A DNA stretch of 64,000 nt from Cephalotus follicularis (Eukaryota > Streptophyta > Magnoliopsida > Oxalidales > Cephalotaceae): contig BDDD01000985.1 of the NCBI GenBank assembly GCA_001972305.1, forward strand, positions 99,692 to 163,691, read 5' to 3'. The notes beneath the pieces are model-generated. The model searched no databases. It was not told where the DNA came from and worked only from the letters and a program-made list of their open reading frames with translations. Below, one piece after another: positions 40,372-51,410 of this stretch. Position numbers and translations under genes: made by a program. Positions within the stretch are counted from its first letter, which is position 1. Each line of letters begins with the position of its first letter.

Positions 40372-40505
40372 TGTAAGGCCCCAAATTTTGTAAATAATTA
40401 TTTTAATGTTGGTATAGTGTATGGCCGTATTGAGCCGATGGAGCCCGAATTGATAAAAAGCATCACGTATTGGAGCCACAAATCATAAGGCCCAAAATGG
40501 CTAAT

Positions 40506-42840
40506 AAAGCCCATTTTTAATGCGCGACAATAAGGCTCTATGTTCGCATTTTTATTGCGATTATTTTGGTACCCGTTCGGATAATTAATATCGCAGATTT
40601 CAAATTAAACGGGACCTATGCCTTAGTATTTTGGCTGGTAAATACTAAAGACGATGCAAAAAAGTTAAAGAAAACAAAAAAGAGAACAGACGGGCGCATA
40701 AGCCACCCGTGCGTTAGAAACCAGAATGGACGCGTTAGAGAGAGGAAGCACGCCATACTAGAGAGAGCGGGAGAGAGATAGTGCGACAGAGAAGACGACG
40801 CCGAGAGAGGAGCTCGACGACCGGAAGCGTGCAGCGTAGGTCCATCACCCACGGTAACACCTCTCCTCATCTCTTTTCCTTCTTCTCTCTTCTCCTCGAC
40901 GCCATCACTGTCGCGAATTGCCATGCGTTCCACTGCCGGTTAGCATCGCGGGAAGGTCTGGTCCTCACCTAGGAGGCCGGCTACACCTATTTCAGAGACC
41001 GATTTGGCACCATTTGTCCGGAAATGGCCGGATTCGAACTAGTGAGTTGACTCAGTGGAGCCAACTCACTACCACCTTTGACCGCGCGTTTGGCGCCGAG
41101 TCTCGGCGAGTTAAGGGCTTTGGTGTGTTTGTCTGATGATTGTGATGCGTTTTATGGTGGTGGACGGAGCTGTAGTTGACCGGCGAGTTAACTGAGAGAG
41201 TTGAACTCACTGGCCGGCCGTGACAGCACGTTTCACGGCGAGTCTCTGGCAGTGACCCATAGAATTGATGATTGTGAGGCGATTTTGGGTGGTGACCGAA
41301 GTTGTGGTTGACCGGCGAGTTGACTCACTGGCCGGCCATGACAGCGAGTTTCACGACAACTCACAGTAAGCCTCCGATGGTTTTGAACATATATTGTGCA
41401 ATGTGGAACCTGTTTTTGGGTTTCGCTGGAGCTGAGTGAGTTGGTCGAAAATTGGCCGAAGCTCTGATGACGGCTGTGCTTGGTTTCCATGCGTAGAGTG
41501 TAACAAAAATGTGTTGTACATGCAGGATAAACGAAACGATCAAGGATAAACGAAACGATCAAGGATAGGATTTCCGAGCTTTACGAGCTCAGTTGCTACG
41601 AGGTAGGTTATACTATTGCTTGCATTACATTCATGCATTCTAAACATTTATATGGATTGATGTGTACGAATTGTATTTGTATGGATGCAAAAGCCCATTT
41701 TTAATGCGCGACAATAAGGCTCTATGTTCGCATTTTTATTGCGATTATTTTGGTACCCGTTCGGATAATTAATATCGCAGATTTCGGATTAAACAGGACC
41801 CATGCCTTAGTATTTTGGCTGGTAAATACTAAAGAAGATGCAAAAAAGTTAAAGAAAACAAAAAGGAGAACACACGGGCGCATAAGGCACCCATGCGTTA
41901 GAAACCAGAATGGACGCGTTAGAGAGCGGGAGCACGCCAGACCAGAGAGAGCGGGAGAGAGATAGTGCGCCGGAGAAGACGACGCCGGGCGAGGAGCTCG
42001 ATGGTCGGAAGCATGCTGCGCAGGTCCATCACCCACGGTAACCCCTCCCCTCATCTCTTTTCCTTTCTTCTCTCTTCTCCCCGATGCCATCACTGTCGCG
42101 CGTTACCATGCGTTACACCGCCGGTTAGCGTCGTGGGAAGGTCTGGTCTTCACCTAGGAGGCCGGCTACACCTATTTCAGTGACCGATTTGGCGCCATTC
42201 GGCCGGAAACGGGCGGATTCAAACCGGCGAGTTGACTCAGTGGAGCCAACTCACTACCGCCTTTGACCGCGCGTTTGGCGGCGAGTCTCGACGAGTTAAG
42301 GGCTTTGGTATGTTTGTCTGATGATTTTGATGAGTTTTATGGTGGTGGCTGGAGCTGTAGTTGACCGGCGAGTCAACTCGGTGAGTAGAACTCACTGGCC
42401 GGCCGTGATAGCGCATTTCACGGCGAGTCTCTGGCAGTGAGGCATAGAATTGATGATTGTGAGGCGATTTTGGGTGGTGACCGAAGCTGTGGTTGACCGG
42501 AGAGTTGACTCAGTGAGTTGACTCACTGGCCGGCCATGATAGCGCGTTTCACGGCAAGTCACGGTGAGCCTCCGATGGTTTTGAACATATCGTCCAATGT
42601 GGAACCTGTTTTTGGGTTTCGCTGGAGCTGAGTGAGTTGGCCGGAGACTGGCTGAAGCTCCGATGATGGCTGTGCTTGGTTTCCGTGCGTAGAGTGTGAC
42701 AGAAATGTGTTGTACATGCAGGATAAATGAAACGATCAAGGATAGAGGATTTCTGAGCTTTACGAGCTCAGTTGCTACGAGGTAGGTTATACTATTGCTT
42801 GCATTACATTCATGCATTCTAAATAATTATATGGATTGAT
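40506..42840 (+). repeat. Tandem duplication of about 1.18 kb inside the V 5' LTR
   Basis: Both halves start AAAGCCCATTTTTAATGCGC (about 40507 and 41693) and end in GTATTTGTATGGATGC (about 41685 and 42860). They carry the same GA-rich leader, the donor-like ACGGTAAC and the same GAGTTGACTCA motifs. They differ at several percent of sites, so the duplication is older than the insertion of V, or the copies come from different sources. Confidence 0.88.
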
Positions 42841-42872
42841 GTGTACGAATTGTATTTGTATGGATGCATGAT

Positions 42873-42895
42873 TGTGCATATATATATATATATAT
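42873..42895 (+). repeat. (TA)n microsatellite in the V 5' LTR
   Basis: An AT run of about 22 bp, matched by a shorter one at 48955-48974 in the 3' LTR. It marks the point where the two LTRs become alignable again. Confidence 0.9.
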
Positions 42896-43084
42896 ACGAG
42901 CATTCGGATGGATATATATACTGCATATGGCATATGATATGAGGGCGACGTTGAATTAAGAGAAGATGAATTCTTGCCTTCCCTCAATTCACGGGCTATG
43001 CGATGACTCTTAAAAAGGGCTTTGAACTATTTTGGACATAGTTTCATTGGTTTACGAACTCTTTCACAAACTGCATTTGCTACC

Positions 43085-43310
43085 AAAACCGTCGACGCTT
43101 TATGCTTTCAAAACCAAACCCGTCGACGCTTTCATGTCTTAAACTGAGTAGTCGATGTTTTATACTTATGCTTTCTAAACTTGTCGACGCTCTTATGAGT
43201 TAAACCAAACAGTCGATGCCGTATGCTTTAAAACAAACCATTGACGTTTTATACTTGTGCATTTTTAAAACTGTTAACGCCCGGGGCTAAGCATCGACGT
43301 TTAGTGCCCT
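43085..43310. repeat. GTCGACGC motif cluster in the V 5' LTR
   Basis: Eight or so copies of forms such as ACCGTCGACGCTTTATG, CCCGTCGACGCTTTCATG and CAGTCGATGCC, about 25-35 bp apart. The same cluster is at 49165-49385 in the 3' LTR with no difference that I could find. Confidence 0.85.
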
Positions 43311-45379
43311 ATTCAGCCCAAACACACCGTTTTACATGGTTTTCCATCCAAAATGGTTGTATCTTCAACCGGATTCCATAGAAAGCCTCCCTAAGGCTAT
43401 GTAACATATGGAAAACCTTCTATATCACATTTGATTTCTAAATCGATGTTCAAAGTGAAGTTTTAAGGAAAGTACTCAATAAAAGAGTTTTACGCAAATG
43501 GTTTCTAAATGGTTTTCAAAATGGTCAGGATAGTTCCATTGGGATATCGAGAAACAGATATCTTATTTGGACTTCCTCTCCATTGTTTTATGGATTTTAG
43601 AATGGTCAGGTGCTTCCATTGGGACATCTGGGCGCGGATACTCCCATTCGGACTCCCTTTCCATTCGTTATAACTTAGATAGGGACCAACCAAATGATAT
43701 ATGAAAAAATAATTACAAAATGGATTATGGACACAAAAATGGCCATTGGATATGAAGAATGACTTATGATTATGAAATGATCTTTATATGATTTGACGGA
43801 TGTGGATCCTATGAAATCCTTTACAAAATGGTCCCTATTATTTAAAACACACATGATTTTGGGTCACAACTACGGGATGGATTATTAATTGTATTGTATG
43901 AGACAAACGAGATAAACCATTCCTGACTTTCATTTCAGTCGTGAATATCATGAAAGTTAGACCAAAGTTTATACCACATTATAATCGAGGACCATACAAA
44001 AGAGCTTACCTCACCTTGTGGTTGACTAATATGTACCCGGCTTACCTCACATTGTGATTGCGGACCATACAAAAGAGTTTACCTCACATTGTGATTGCAG
44101 ACCATTAGGTACAGGACTTATCTCACATCGTGGTACGGACAATACAAAAGAGCTTACCCCACATTGTTAGAAGACCAATATGAATTATGATACAACAAAG
44201 AGGTTAGTGTTATCTCATTCCTCACACCTCCAAGACACCAAAAGTGCGTCGAGGGTGGGATGGACCCTATGGACTGGTTGACCCTATGATTGATATAGAT
44301 TGTTATATGGAATGTATGCAGGCCTATGGCCTTTTATGTGATTAGGACCAGCCCAGTATACCACTGCTTAGAAACAGTTGGTATACTGACGCTGTCAGCA
44401 AATGTCATTTGTACACACGACATGCCATACATATATAAAATACCGTTGAAAGCATATCACTATTATGTTGATGCACTACATGACATACATTGATATAATG
44501 TAGCATGCATATCACTATTATGCTGATACACTACATGACATACATTGATATATTGTTACACGCATATCACTATAATACTGTTGCATGCATAGCATAGTAT
44601 ACCTACACGACATTATGTAGCAGACCCATTTCCCATATATGCGGAATGGGTCAGGCTCAGGAACAGGTGATGGACTGCAATGAGGTAAGCTGAGAACGAA
44701 AAGTTTTCTATAACAAATTTTGTTAGCCAATTGTATATGGAGTTGCTTGTATTTGGTTTTGCTTATATGAGTTGAATATAAGATTTGTATAAAAGGGGCC
44801 TCATGTTTATGATTAAAATGTTTTGAGATATAAGGCTTGTTATGTATAAGGATTGTGAAAAGGAACCCTATGTATTTGAGACAAACATAAAGATGTTATA
44901 GTTATGTTTTATTCAGCTATCGACCTGCCGGCATGTGGCAGTGCTTATGATATGTGTATTGATGTATTAAACAGGGACAAGCCCATCATTTGAGGCATTA
45001 GAATGATATGATATTGGTTTAGTTGTGATTGCTGAGGGCTGAGCCCGTATATATACATAAACTGCTGATTCCTCCTTCGGGAGTGTTGAGATATAAATTG
45101 AGTTTTTCTTTACAGGGGGTTTAGTCCTATAAACGAATATTTCATGCCGAATTTTTGGGAGATTTCAAGAGTTAGTTTTTATTGGATTTGATTATTCCGC
45201 TGATGTTATATAATGATTCTTCCGTTTATTTGACTTTGATTTAAAGTTTTAAATTTGTAGCACTTTTTGGAGCATGATTATATATGACATGATTACATAT
45301 GACATAAATGGACTGAAGAGAATGAATATCATGTGTCGGATCATGGGGGTTTACTCTCGTAGTTCGGGGCGTGACAACT

Positions 45380-45392
45380 TGGTATCAGAGCC
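45380..45392 (+). promoter_or_regulatory. Primer-binding site of element V
   Basis: TGGTATCAGAGCC begins three bases after the LTR end and matches initiator Met-tRNA perfectly over the usual 12 bases. Confidence 0.93.
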
Positions 45393-48300
45393 GGTCCTAT
45401 GCTGGATACGCCAGGATAGGGTCCTTGGCTATGGGAATTGAGAATGATTGGTGGAAATAAAGTGCTAATTGGAGTTACTTGGAATAGCAGAATGATAAGT
45501 GTTACATGGAGTTTCTTGGAATTATGAGTATAAGAAGTCAATAGCTGAATCTTTGTCTTTTAAACAAGTAGATATGGAACAGAAAAGGAAAGGAACTACC
45601 ATACCACATTTAGATTAGTCCCACTATCGGGAATTATCGAGGACATACAATTTGACCTAGTCTCACAGTTTTATGGTATGGGCTGGTTATAGAGTTATGG
45701 ATCATACGGTTGTGGACCGTACAACCATGAATCGTACGGCTAGGGATCGTGCAGTTATGGCTAAAAGATAAGGTATGGATACGGATATGATATGTTTGCG
45801 GATCATACCGTTACGGATCGTAATGGTCCGGATTATGATGTTATAGTTGGAAGACAGTCCGTGTGTTTATTTAACCCTCCTACGGATATCGGATGGATTG
45901 GTTAGCAACACATTGTACCCATGTGAATGGGTACGGGAAGGTTAAGACCTTCAATAAATCAAGATAGTCTCAATTCCACTTTATTGGGACTTTGGATCAT
46001 CAGCCAATTTAGATGATATCAGCCCTTCATGCTGATAGACTTATGGGACAAGGCTACAGTGGATATCTGGCATATGTGACCGATAACAGGAGACTGGTAC
46101 GGAGGTTTGAGGATGTTTTGGTTGTTTGTGAATACCTGGACATGGTTCCGGGTGAGTTAACATCCTTACCTCTAGAGAAGGGTTCAGAGTATTTGATTGA
46201 TTGCTTCTAGGGTTTGACACGAATTGTCCTCTGTTTGTCAACCCCTCTGTCGATCAACACGTCGACGCATTGGTTCATAGCGTCGGCGCCTATGAATGAA
46301 GAGTTGACACCCTAGAGGTGAGCTGTTGACCCGATGACCATTCTTTCGCGTTTCTATGCATTAACTAGTGTTATACGTCGACGCCTGGAGGATGGTGTTG
46401 ACGCCTAAATGTTCTGTTTCATATGAAGTTTCTAGTTTTGCTTGGGTTTTATCCTTAAAGGATTCCCTAGTCAGGCTAATACCTAAGGCTACCGAGTAGG
46501 TCGTTTCTAAGGCCGCCAAGTAGTCTAGACTTGCTAGGGAGGCCGACTTCAAAAAGGCAACCCCTCCGGAAACCCATGAGATATACCAATGGTGTGACAG
46601 TGAGGGCCATGACATGTGAAGCGAACAGGTCACTGACTGAGATGAACGTGGTAGATCTGTGTGGTACCGAGAGGATGGGTCGACGAGCCCTGACTACAGG
46701 ACGTATATTGTACAATTTATGGTATATGGTTATGGCATGGCAAAGATACGGTTATGGACCCGGATTCGCTCAGTTCATGTATTGCCTTGTGACTCATATG
46801 TCATGCTAATGTGAAACCAGAACCCTTATGGAATGTTATGTAAGTTAATACCCCAATGGGAGAATCTATTCACCCTGAAGGAGTATGAGTCGTGCGCTAT
46901 AACGATAGCCGACCCTATATGACGGCAATCCTCCTAGTATTGCCGATGGATGAGTTAGAAAGTGATTACTGAGATGGATCCATTTGGATATGTGTTATCA
47001 TCGACAATCTCTAAGTCACGATATGGACCTTGTGGGTGGATCCTAGTGTCGTTAAAAGGGATGATCAATTCCCCACTACATTCACAAACTTTATGGAAGG
47101 GGTGTGTAATCCATATCTTGACCATATCATCGTAGTCTCCTTCGATGATGTGTTAGTGCATTCCAAGCTTGCGGAATGCCATGGGAAGTGGTTGTACTAA
47201 ACACGGCAGGTCTTGCGAGATCGCCAATGGTATGCTAAGTTCAGCAAGTATGGAGTTTTTATTATTGGAGGTAGCTTCCTTGTTCACGTTGACCACAGTG
47301 TTGGTTCGTCTGTGGACCTAACAAGTGTAAGCAGTGAAGGATTGGGAATGGCCGATAAACGTGGCTATAGTCCGTGGTTTCTTAGGCTTAGCGGGTTACT
47401 ATCACCGCTTTGTCGAGGAATTTTTACGGATTACCACACATTTGACTCGATTGACGCAGAAAGATGGGATGTAAAAGATGACAGTGGTAAAGGGACCTTC
47501 CAGGAGTTAAAACATCGTCTGATATCTGCGCCGATCATGGTTTTAACTGAGAGCAATGATGGTTTCGTGGTATATAGTGATGCCTCAGGGAACGATGTGA
47601 ATTGTGTTTTGAGATTGTTTGGGGAATGAGCCCCTATGTCTTAAGGAAAGTTGGAACCTCAGGAGTAAGTTACTCTACTCATGACCTAGAAATTACAGCG
47701 TTAGCCGTGCGCTACACCAATGGAGACCCTGTCTATACGACACAAAGTTAGAGGTTTTCATATATCACAAAGGTCTGAAACATCCTTTCTCTTAGAAGGA
47801 TCTAAATATGAAATAGAGAAGGTAGATGGAGCTGCTCAATGGTTACATCTGTGAGATCCAATGTCAACCAGGCGATGCTAATATGCTTGCAGATGCCTTA
47901 GGTTGCTGATTAGCTTGCTTGATGATTTCCTAAGTTCAAGCACAACCATGGTTGATGGATAGAATTGAGAGGCCCAGGAATGGGTGGTGAATTGCTTAAG
48001 GCTGTATTACATGATCAAGATGAATCCAAACCAAAATTCTTGATTCGTGTTGATGAGTTGATAAAATCCCAAGGCAGAGTTGTGCCCTTTTCAACGAAAA
48101 GCCGAGAGAGGAGTTGTGGATTCAAGCTTATCGCTCCAGTTTCTCAGTACATCCAGCGATTAGCAAGACGTATCGAGATCTGTAACTCAATTTGGTGGAA
48201 TGACATGATGAAGGAGTGGGCACAGTATCCTATAGGCTTGCCTTGCCACTCAGCCTACGGGATCGGAACCTACCATATAAGGTAGTATATATGCCCTAGA

Positions 48301-48737
48301 TCAGGGTGGCATCACAGAAGCGTGATGGATAGAGATAACAGTTGGAATGGAATTCTGCCGTTAGCAGAAGTCACACAGAAGATCATGTATTTCATAAGGT
48401 GTTCATATATCAATACTCAGAATGTATTATCCAGATCCTTCTCACGTGCAACCACGTGAGCCGTTAGAACTAAGGACGGATACGAGTTTGAGGAGAACTC
48501 ATATATATGTATATACGTATATGTTCAAAGATGGTTTTCGAATGATATAGACGCCGAAGGACGATGAAACGGGTTATACGATCGTGGACCAAATGGTTAA
48601 AGGATGAGGACATTTCATGGGTGAAGTGTGATGATAATGCTATGAGCTTGAGAAAGTTTTATGAGACGCAAGAAACAAACGAAGACATTCTACCCTCACA
48701 TGTTTTAACCTAAGGAATCCCGAGGACGAGATTTTTC
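45393..48737 (+). pseudogene. Element V: eroded Ty3/gypsy internal region
   Basis: The internal region is 3.4 kb, short for a gypsy element, and holds only weak echoes of pol in normal order. These are the pre-RT segment VCEYLDMVPGELTSLP (about 46115-46165), an RT echo around VSFDDVLVHSKL (about 47135-47170), an RNase H echo VVYSDASGND (about 47565-47600) and a zinc-finger echo IWWNDMMKEW (about 48190-48220). I see no gag. A GTCGACGC motif cluster lies at about 46240-46410. The remnant has many breaks and could not make working enzymes, yet both LTRs, the primer site and the purine tract are in place. Confidence 0.8.
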
Positions 48738-48751
48738 TAAGGAGGGGAGGA
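48738..48751 (+). promoter_or_regulatory. Polypurine tract of element V
   Basis: AAGGAGGGGAGGA lies immediately upstream of the 3' LTR. Confidence 0.85.
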
Positions 48752-51410
48752 CGTAAGGCCCCAAATTTTGTAAATAATTATTTTAATGTTGGTACGGTGT
48801 ATAGCTGTATTGAGCCGATGGAGCCCGAATTGATAAAAAGCATCGCGTATTGGAGCCGCAAATCATAAGGCCCAAAATGGCTAATAAAGCCCATTTTTAA
48901 TGCGCGACAATAAGGCTCTATGTTCGCATTTTTATTGCGATTATTTTGGTACCCATATATATATATATATATACGAGCATTCGGATGGATATATATACTG
49001 CATATGGCATATGATATGAGGGCGACGTTGAATTAAGAGAAGATGAATTCTTGCCTTCCCTCAATTCACGGGCTATGCGATGACTCTTAAAAAGGGCTTT
49101 GAACTATTTTGGACATAGTTTCATTGGTTTACGAACTCTTTCACAAACTGCATTTGCTACCAAAACCGTCGACGCTTTATGCTTTCAAAACCAAACCCGT
49201 CGACGCTTTCATGTCTTAAACTGAGTAGTCGATGTTTTATACTTATGCTTTCTAAACTTGTCGACGCTCTTATGAGTTAAACCAAACAGTCGATGCCGTA
49301 TGCTTTAAAACAAACCATTGACGTTTTATACTTGTGCATTTTTAAAACTGTTAACGCCCGGGGCTAAGCATCGACGTTTAGTGCCCTATTCAGCCCAAAC
49401 ACACCGTTTTACATGGTTTTCCATCCAAAATGGTTGTATCTTCAACCGGATTCCATAGAAAGCCTCCCTAAGGCTATGTAACATATGGAAAACCTTCTAT
49501 ATCACATTTGATTTCTAAATCGATGTTCAAAGTGAAGTTTTAAGGAAAGTACTCAATAAAAGAGTTTTACGCAAATGGTTTCTAAATGGTTTTCAAAATG
49601 GTCAGGATAGTTCCATTGGGATATCGAGATACGGATATCTTATTTGGACTTCCTCTCCATTGTTTTATGGATTTTAGAATGGTCAGGTGCTTCCATTGGG
49701 ACATCTGGGCGCGGATACTCCCATTCGGGCTCCCTTTCCATTCGTTATAACTTCGATAGGGACCAACCAAATGATATATGAAAAATTAATTACAAAATGG
49801 ATTATGGACACAAAAATGGCCATTGGATATGAAGAATGACTTATGATTATGAAATGATCTTTATATGATTTGACGGATGTGGATCCTATGAGATCCTTTA
49901 CAAAATGGTCCCTATTATTTAAAACACACATGATTTTGGGTCACAACTACGGGATGGATTATTCATTGTATTGTATGAGACTAACGAGATAACCCATTCC
50001 TGACTTTCATTTCCGTCGTGAATGTCATGAAAGTTAGACCACAGTTTATACCACATTGTAATCGCGGACCATACAAAAGAGCTTACCTCACCTTGTGGTT
50101 GACTACTATGTACCCGGCTTACCTCACATTGTGATTGCGGACCATACAAAAGCGTTTACCTCACATTGTGATTGCAGACCATTAGGTACAGGACTTATCT
50201 CACATCGTGGTACGGACCATACAAAAGAGCTTACCCCACGTTGTTAGATGACCAATATGAATTATGATACGACATTGAGGTTAGTGTTATCTCATTCCTC
50301 ACACCTCCACGACACCAAAAGTGCGTCGAGGGTGGGATGGACCCTATGGACTGGTTGTCCCTATGATTGATATGGATTGTTATATGGACTGTTTGCAGGC
50401 CTATGGCCTTTTATGTGATTAGGACCAGCCCAGTATACCACTGCTTAGCTACAGTTGGTATACTGACGCTGTCCGCAAATGTCATTTGTGCACACGACAT
50501 GCCATACATATATATTATACCGTTGCATGCATATCACTATTATGTTGATGCACTACATGACATACATTGATATGTTGTCGCATGCATATCACTATTATGC
50601 TGATGCACTACATGACATACATTGATCTATTGTTACACGCATATCACTATCATACTGTTGCATGCATAGCATAGTATACCTACACGACATTATGTTGCGG
50701 ACCCATTTCCCTTGTGTGCGGAATGGGTCAGGCTCAGGCACAGGTGATGGACTGCCATGAGGTAAGCTGAGAACGACAGGTTTTCTATAACACATTTTGT
50801 TAGCCAATTGTATATGGAGTTGCTTGTATTTGGTTTTGCTTATATGAGTTGAATATAAGATTTGTATAAAAGGGGCCTCATGTTTATGATTAAAATGTTT
50901 TGAGATACAAGGCTTGTTATGTATAAGGATTGTGAAAAGGAACCCTATGTATTTGAGACAAATATAAAGATGTTATAGTTATGTTTTATTCAGCTATCGA
51001 CCTGCCGGCATGTGGCAGTGCTTATGATATGTGTATTGATGTATTAAATAGGGACAAGCCCATCATTTGAGGCATTAGAATGATATGATACTGGTTTAGT
51101 TGTGATTGCTGAGGGCTGAGCCCGTATATATACATAAACTGTTGATTCCTCCTTCGGGAGTGTTGAGATATAAATTCAGTTTTTCTTTACAGGGCGTTTA
51201 GTCCTATAAATGAATACTTCATGCCGAAATTTCGGGAGATTTCAAGAGTTAGTTTTTATTGGATTTGATTATTCCGCTGATGTTATATAATGATTCTTCC
51301 GCTGATGTTATATAATGATTCTTCCGCTTATTTGACTTTGATTTAAAGTTCTAAATTTGTAGCACTTTTTGGAGCATGATTATATATGACATAAAGTTCG
51401 GGGTGTGACA
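48752..51410 (+). mobile_element. Element V: 3' LTR (2,659 bp)
   Basis: It matches the 5' LTR at its first 200 bp and again from about 48955 to the end GGGGTGTGACA. It lacks the duplicated GA-rich leader block of the 5' LTR. It is followed by TATAG, the partner of CATAG before the 5' LTR. Outside the one-sided block the two LTRs differ at only about 1% of sites, so the insertion looks recent on a plant time scale (inference). Confidence 0.9.

What the first reader, a model, noticed from the sequence alone, without database searches (positions are those of the whole stretch)
43550..44715. All 51 differences between the two V LTRs in this block have A in the 5' copy
I aligned this block by eye to its partner at about 49627-50790 in the 3' LTR. 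I counted 51 substitutions and no indels. In every one the 5' copy has A, where the 3' copy has C (21), G (15) or T (15). The 650 bp before the block are essentially identical and the 650 bp after it show about ten ordinary, mostly transition differences. The chance of 51 of 51 with unbiased mutation is negligible. Internal direct repeats, and a related segment of solo LTR S, mostly support the 3' copy as ancestral, so bases seem to have been replaced by A in the 5' copy; a few sites point the other way. Candidate causes: unknown bases written as A during assembly or polishing; strand-biased A insertion opposite lesions on single-stranded cDNA; or, read in reverse, adenine-specific mutagenesis of the kind known from diversity-generating retroelements. 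It does not fit cytidine deamination.
Basis: seen in the sequence. Interest (0 to 1): 0.75.

Follow-up and report, generated by a model that had tools for sequence, protein, structure and literature searches.

The report
Assembly artefact: ambiguous bases became A
A 1.2-kb stretch of a plant retrotransposon repeat looks as if bases had mutated one-sidedly to A, but it reads as two repeat copies merged during genome assembly with every disagreement written as A, so it is most likely a data artefact and not biology.

Summary
Between the two LTRs of one element, which looks like a plant LTR retrotransposon, 51 of 51 substitutions in 43553-44716 have A in the 5' copy, without indels. Mutation does not explain it. 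With a third genomic copy, L009 (contig C4958), the rule is plain: the 3' copy and L009 differ at 58 sites of the block, and the 5' copy reads A at 58 of 58; at 34 of these neither of the other two has A. At all 786 columns where the 5' copy does not read A, the three agree. For the other 37 copies fetched, the same share is 44-58%; outside the block it is 3 of 40. So the block is a consensus of two repeat sequences with every disagreement written as A, as IUPAC codes turned into A would look. At least one gap closer, Sealer, writes such two-path consensuses (PMC4515008, passages); which program was used here is unknown. Three sites (44637, 44639, 44702) need a second path slightly unlike L009. 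Whether the A's stand in the deposited assembly or arose in the copy served here was not testable. No second such block appeared in 309 kb scanned. Interest is low.

The parts
43553..44716 (+). Merged block: two-sequence consensus in which every disagreement reads A (51 A differences to the 3' LTR; 58 of 58 sites where the 3' LTR and L009 differ). By informative sites the left edge lies between 43282 and 43553 (43415 and 43466 also obey the rule, 43281 does not) and the right edge between 44716 and 44755.
49630..50793 (+). Partner stretch in the 3' LTR, which matches one of the two merged sequences
42877..43552 (+). Stretch before the block, 0 differences to the 3' LTR in 676 bp although other parts of the LTR pair differ by 2-3%; possibly the same collapsed repeat sequence placed twice
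40372..45378 (+). 5' LTR as read by eye (followed by a TGGTATCAGAGC primer-binding-like stretch); longer than the 3' LTR by about 2.3 kb of tandem units 40506-42868
   Evidence: boundaries by eye
48752..51409 (+). 3' LTR, preceded by a purine-rich stretch; flanks CATAG/TATAG look like a 5-bp target duplication with one mismatch
   Evidence: boundaries by eye

Best explanation
The block is an assembly product. During assembly or gap closing, two alternative repeat sequences of equal length (one matching the 3' LTR, one nearly matching the copy on contig C4958) were merged into one consensus for the 5' LTR. At every position where they disagreed the consensus had an ambiguity code or no call, and that symbol was later written as A. 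Shown: the A positions are the disagreement positions of these two sequences, but for three. Inferred: that the symbol was an IUPAC code, that the step was a gap closer or path-consensus step, and that A came from a default value.
For: In 1164 columns the 3' LTR and L009 differ at 58, and the 5' copy has A at 58 of 58 (chance 2e-30 given its A content of 378 of 1164). At 34 of the 58 neither has A, at 14 L009 has it, at 10 the 3' copy has it. 48 of the 51 A differences fall on these 58 sites (chance 2e-71). At 786 of 786 columns where the 5' copy does not read A all three agree. Control: for the other 37 copies the A share is 44-58%. Outside the block it is 3 of 40, and two of these three (43415, 43466) adjoin the block and may belong to it. 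No indel in the block, as expected of equal-length paths. No letter other than A, C, G, T, N in 309,193 bases. Sealer writes a consensus of multiple paths (default limit 2) with IUPAC codes for mismatched bases (PMC4515008, passages).
Against: Three A sites (44637, 44639, 44702) are not explained by L009, which has G there like the 3' copy; at 44637 all 36 copies with a base have G. So the second path differed slightly from L009, or there was a third. L009 was picked afterwards as the best of 38. No second block of this kind was found in 309 kb, so the conversion is not shown to be general. The organism and the assembler are unknown, and no reads were seen.
Confidence: 0.95

Rival explanations
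1. A variant of the best explanation: no IUPAC codes, but a consensus caller that wrote a no-call between two equally supported bases as the first letter, A.
For: Makes the same prediction.
Against: A plain tie-break between C and T would give C or T, not A; it needs a no-call default. Nothing here separates it from the IUPAC reading.
Confidence: 0.2
2. Another variant: the codes became A not in the deposited assembly but when the genome was packed for the collection behind this window.
For: No IUPAC letter in 309,193 bases of this genome; two-bit packing with A as code 0 is a common default (recalled).
Against: No direct evidence; ambiguity codes may simply be absent from the deposited assembly.
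Confidence: 0.4
3. Real strand-biased A insertion opposite lesions on single-stranded cDNA during reverse transcription.
For: One-sidedness.
Against: Lesion sites would not coincide with the differences between two other copies; 58 of 58 do. Only the three sites 44637, 44639 and 44702 would need no such coincidence.
Confidence: 0.01
4. Adenine-specific mutagenesis (DGR-like) of the 3' copy from an A-bearing template.
For: All differences have A on one side.
Against: A is the commonest family base at only 6 of 51 sites, and at 28 the family shares the 3' base. I ran no search for DGR parts.
Confidence: 0.005
5. Gene conversion or recombination between LTR copies made a mosaic.
For: The 5' copy agrees with both the 3' copy and L009 at every column where it does not read A.
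Against: A mosaic carries one parent's base at each site; 34 of 58 sites carry a third base.
Confidence: 0.01

Closest known systems
IUPAC-coded path consensus of short-read gap closers (Sealer/Konnector of the ABySS suite)
   Same: Alternative paths between fixed flanks are merged to one sequence with a code at each mismatch (PMC4515008, passages seen).
   Different: Here the disagreements read A; which program made this assembly is unknown.
Diversity-generating retroelements (recalled)
   Same: Differences concentrate on A on one side.
   Different: A is the commonest family base at only 6 of 51 sites; I did not search for reverse transcriptase or template-repeat parts.

Membership tests
Consensus-of-two-paths assembly artefact | Odd bases occur where two other genomic copies disagree | tested here: met
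   58 of 58 sites of disagreement read A; 48 of 51 A differences fall on them, 3 do not
Consensus-of-two-paths assembly artefact | Outside the odd positions the block equals both copies | tested here: met
   786 of 786 columns where the 5' copy does not read A agree in all three
Consensus-of-two-paths assembly artefact | Raw reads do not carry the odd bases | not testable with these tools
   No reads held
Consensus-of-two-paths assembly artefact | Original record bears ambiguity codes at these sites, or at others | not testable with these tools
   Only A, C, G, T, N in 309,193 bases held; original record not available
DGR-like adenine mutagenesis | A is the template (ancestral) base at variable sites | tested here: not met
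   A commonest in the family at 6 of 51 sites
Cytidine deamination (G-to-A or C-to-T) | One substitution class dominates | tested here: not met
   21 C, 15 G, 15 T opposite A

The most novel reading that the evidence does not exclude
A real process that reads mismatches in a heteroduplex of two retrotransposon cDNA strands and fills every mismatch with A.
Probability: 0.005. Interest if true: 0.9.

Novelty: not a real feature. Interest (0 to 1): 0.07.

Why it matters
It is a warning rather than a discovery. Disagreements silently written as A can mimic strand-biased hypermutation, inflate LTR divergence and age estimates, and create false A variants. Comparing with a third copy (does the odd base fall where two other copies disagree?) is a cheap and sharp diagnostic.

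Tried and rejected
Looked for other one-sided blocks. Among 40 aligned copies, and in 309,193 bases of window plus loci L009-L076 (69 sequences; 3667 alignments of at least 300 columns at 80% identity or more, both directions counted), the runs outside the block reached 14 differences at most. The row of 49 (window against L009, 43415-44716) is the same block reached from two sites before it. L001-L008 were left out because L009-L014 or the window cover the same copies; L047 and L048 are the window's own places. Of the seven other loci with runs of 9 or more, I printed six (L029, L037, L051, L060, L062, L064): their runs span about 20-53 bases; L051, L060, L062 and L064 lie in A/T-rich or simple-repeat sequence, L029 and L037 in ordinary sequence that the two share almost letter for letter on opposite strands. 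The run of L036 (span 138 bases) was not inspected.

The 38 copies are those that the first search scored (40 places scored of 5184 candidates, the two LTRs of the window among them), so only a part of the family was compared. In one search each copy was cut to the stretch that matched the 3' LTR, and BLAST pieces under 600 columns were dropped; 10 or more copies therefore lack the last part of the LTR, and L045 lacks part of the block (1033 of 1164 columns).

Thought of telling from T blocks against A blocks at which stage the letters changed; one block is too few. Looked for print on ambiguity codes turned into A (search listings only): nothing to the point seen in the rows shown; apart from PMC4515008 no paper was opened. 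Pfam on the element's interior, in one reading frame with X at stops: no family at E 0.001; the ORFs there are short and were not searched. Is C4958 the other allele of this place? The sequence after the LTR in L009 and L002 does not match the window next to either LTR, and the other side is N, so it is probably another locus.

Full report
The observation. Aligning 42877-45290 with 48954-51392 gives 64 substitutions and one 25-base indel. The 51 substitutions in 43553-44716 all have A in the 5' copy; opposite stand 21 C, 15 G and 15 T. The 676 bp before have none; the 574 aligned bases after have 13.

The setting. The genome has 1.577 Gb in 9746 contigs. The element has a TGGTATCAGAGC stretch after the 5' LTR, the usual plant primer-binding site for initiator methionine tRNA (recalled), so I take it for a plant LTR retrotransposon; the organism was not identified. 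By eye the 5' LTR runs 40372-45378 and the 3' LTR 48752-51409, with flanks CATAG and TATAG. The 5' LTR carries about 2.3 kb of tandem units that the 3' LTR lacks.

The test. I fetched the 38 further copies of this LTR that the search had scored (40 scored of 5184 candidates, the window's two included) and aligned them. Copy L009 (contig C4958) is the telling one. In the block's 1164 columns, the 3' LTR and L009 differ at 58; the 5' copy reads A at 58 of 58. At 34 neither has A, at 14 L009 has A, at 10 the 3' LTR has A. Three more sites (44637, 44639, 44702) have A in the 5' copy where both others have G. At the 786 columns where the 5' copy reads C, G or T, all three agree. L009 was picked as the best of 38, but the other 37 reach only 44-58% on the same count, and outside the block L009 itself gives 3 of 40. 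Given the A content of the block, 58 of 58 has a chance of 2e-30, and the overlap of 48 of 51 with the 58 a chance of 2e-71.

Direction. Over the 38 copies the commonest base at the 51 sites is the 3' base at 28, A at 6 and another base at 17; at the 17 and at the 6 it is always the base of L009, at 25 of the 28 it is not. So A appears both where the 3' LTR departs from the family and where L009 does. A mutation process acting on the 5' copy alone would not follow both.

Reading. The block is a consensus of two equal-length repeat sequences with each disagreement coded, and the code written as A. Sealer, for one, produces consensus sequences for multiple paths (default limit 2) with IUPAC codes for mismatched bases (PMC4515008, passages read). 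I do not know that Sealer was used here. The edges can be placed only between informative sites: 43282-43553 on the left (43415 and 43466 have A in the 5' copy and obey the rule, 43281 does not) and 44716-44755 on the right. The 0 of 676 differences before the block, against 13 of 574 after it (P 3e-5; the test was run with 567, the columns where L009 also has a base), suggest that the stretch before is also a repeat sequence placed twice, though recent gene conversion would look the same.

What is not settled. Whether the A's are in the deposited assembly or arose in packing the genome for this collection: 309,193 bases held no IUPAC letter, which fits both. The three extra sites need a second path slightly unlike L009, or a third. 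No second block was found in the same 309 kb, most of it one LTR family and one other repeat family, so how common the artefact is in this assembly is unknown. Some N runs near copies of this LTR may be gaps or withheld stretches.

Verdict. The pattern is real in the letters, and most likely an artefact as biology. Divergence of this LTR pair should be counted without the block.

Noticed in passing
42877-43552 and 48954-49629: 676 bp identical between the two LTRs although other parts differ by 2-3% (6 of 202 at 40373-40574, 13 of 574 after the block): repeat sequence placed twice, or recent gene conversion.
   Followed up: partly
40506-42868: Two tandem units of about 1.2 kb (90% alike) in the 5' LTR that the 3' LTR lacks; either a real size difference of the LTRs or a mis-joined pair.
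   Followed up: no
L016:2141-3201, L045:2216-3301, L009:1-311: N runs that begin or end in or beside copies of this LTR; that of L016 begins about 10 bases past the place matching the block's last A site. Gaps or withheld stretches, not decided.
   Followed up: no
45379-48751: Interior of the element has no ORF above 138 aa (bacterial starts) and no Pfam match in the one frame searched; it may be non-autonomous or decayed.
   Followed up: partly
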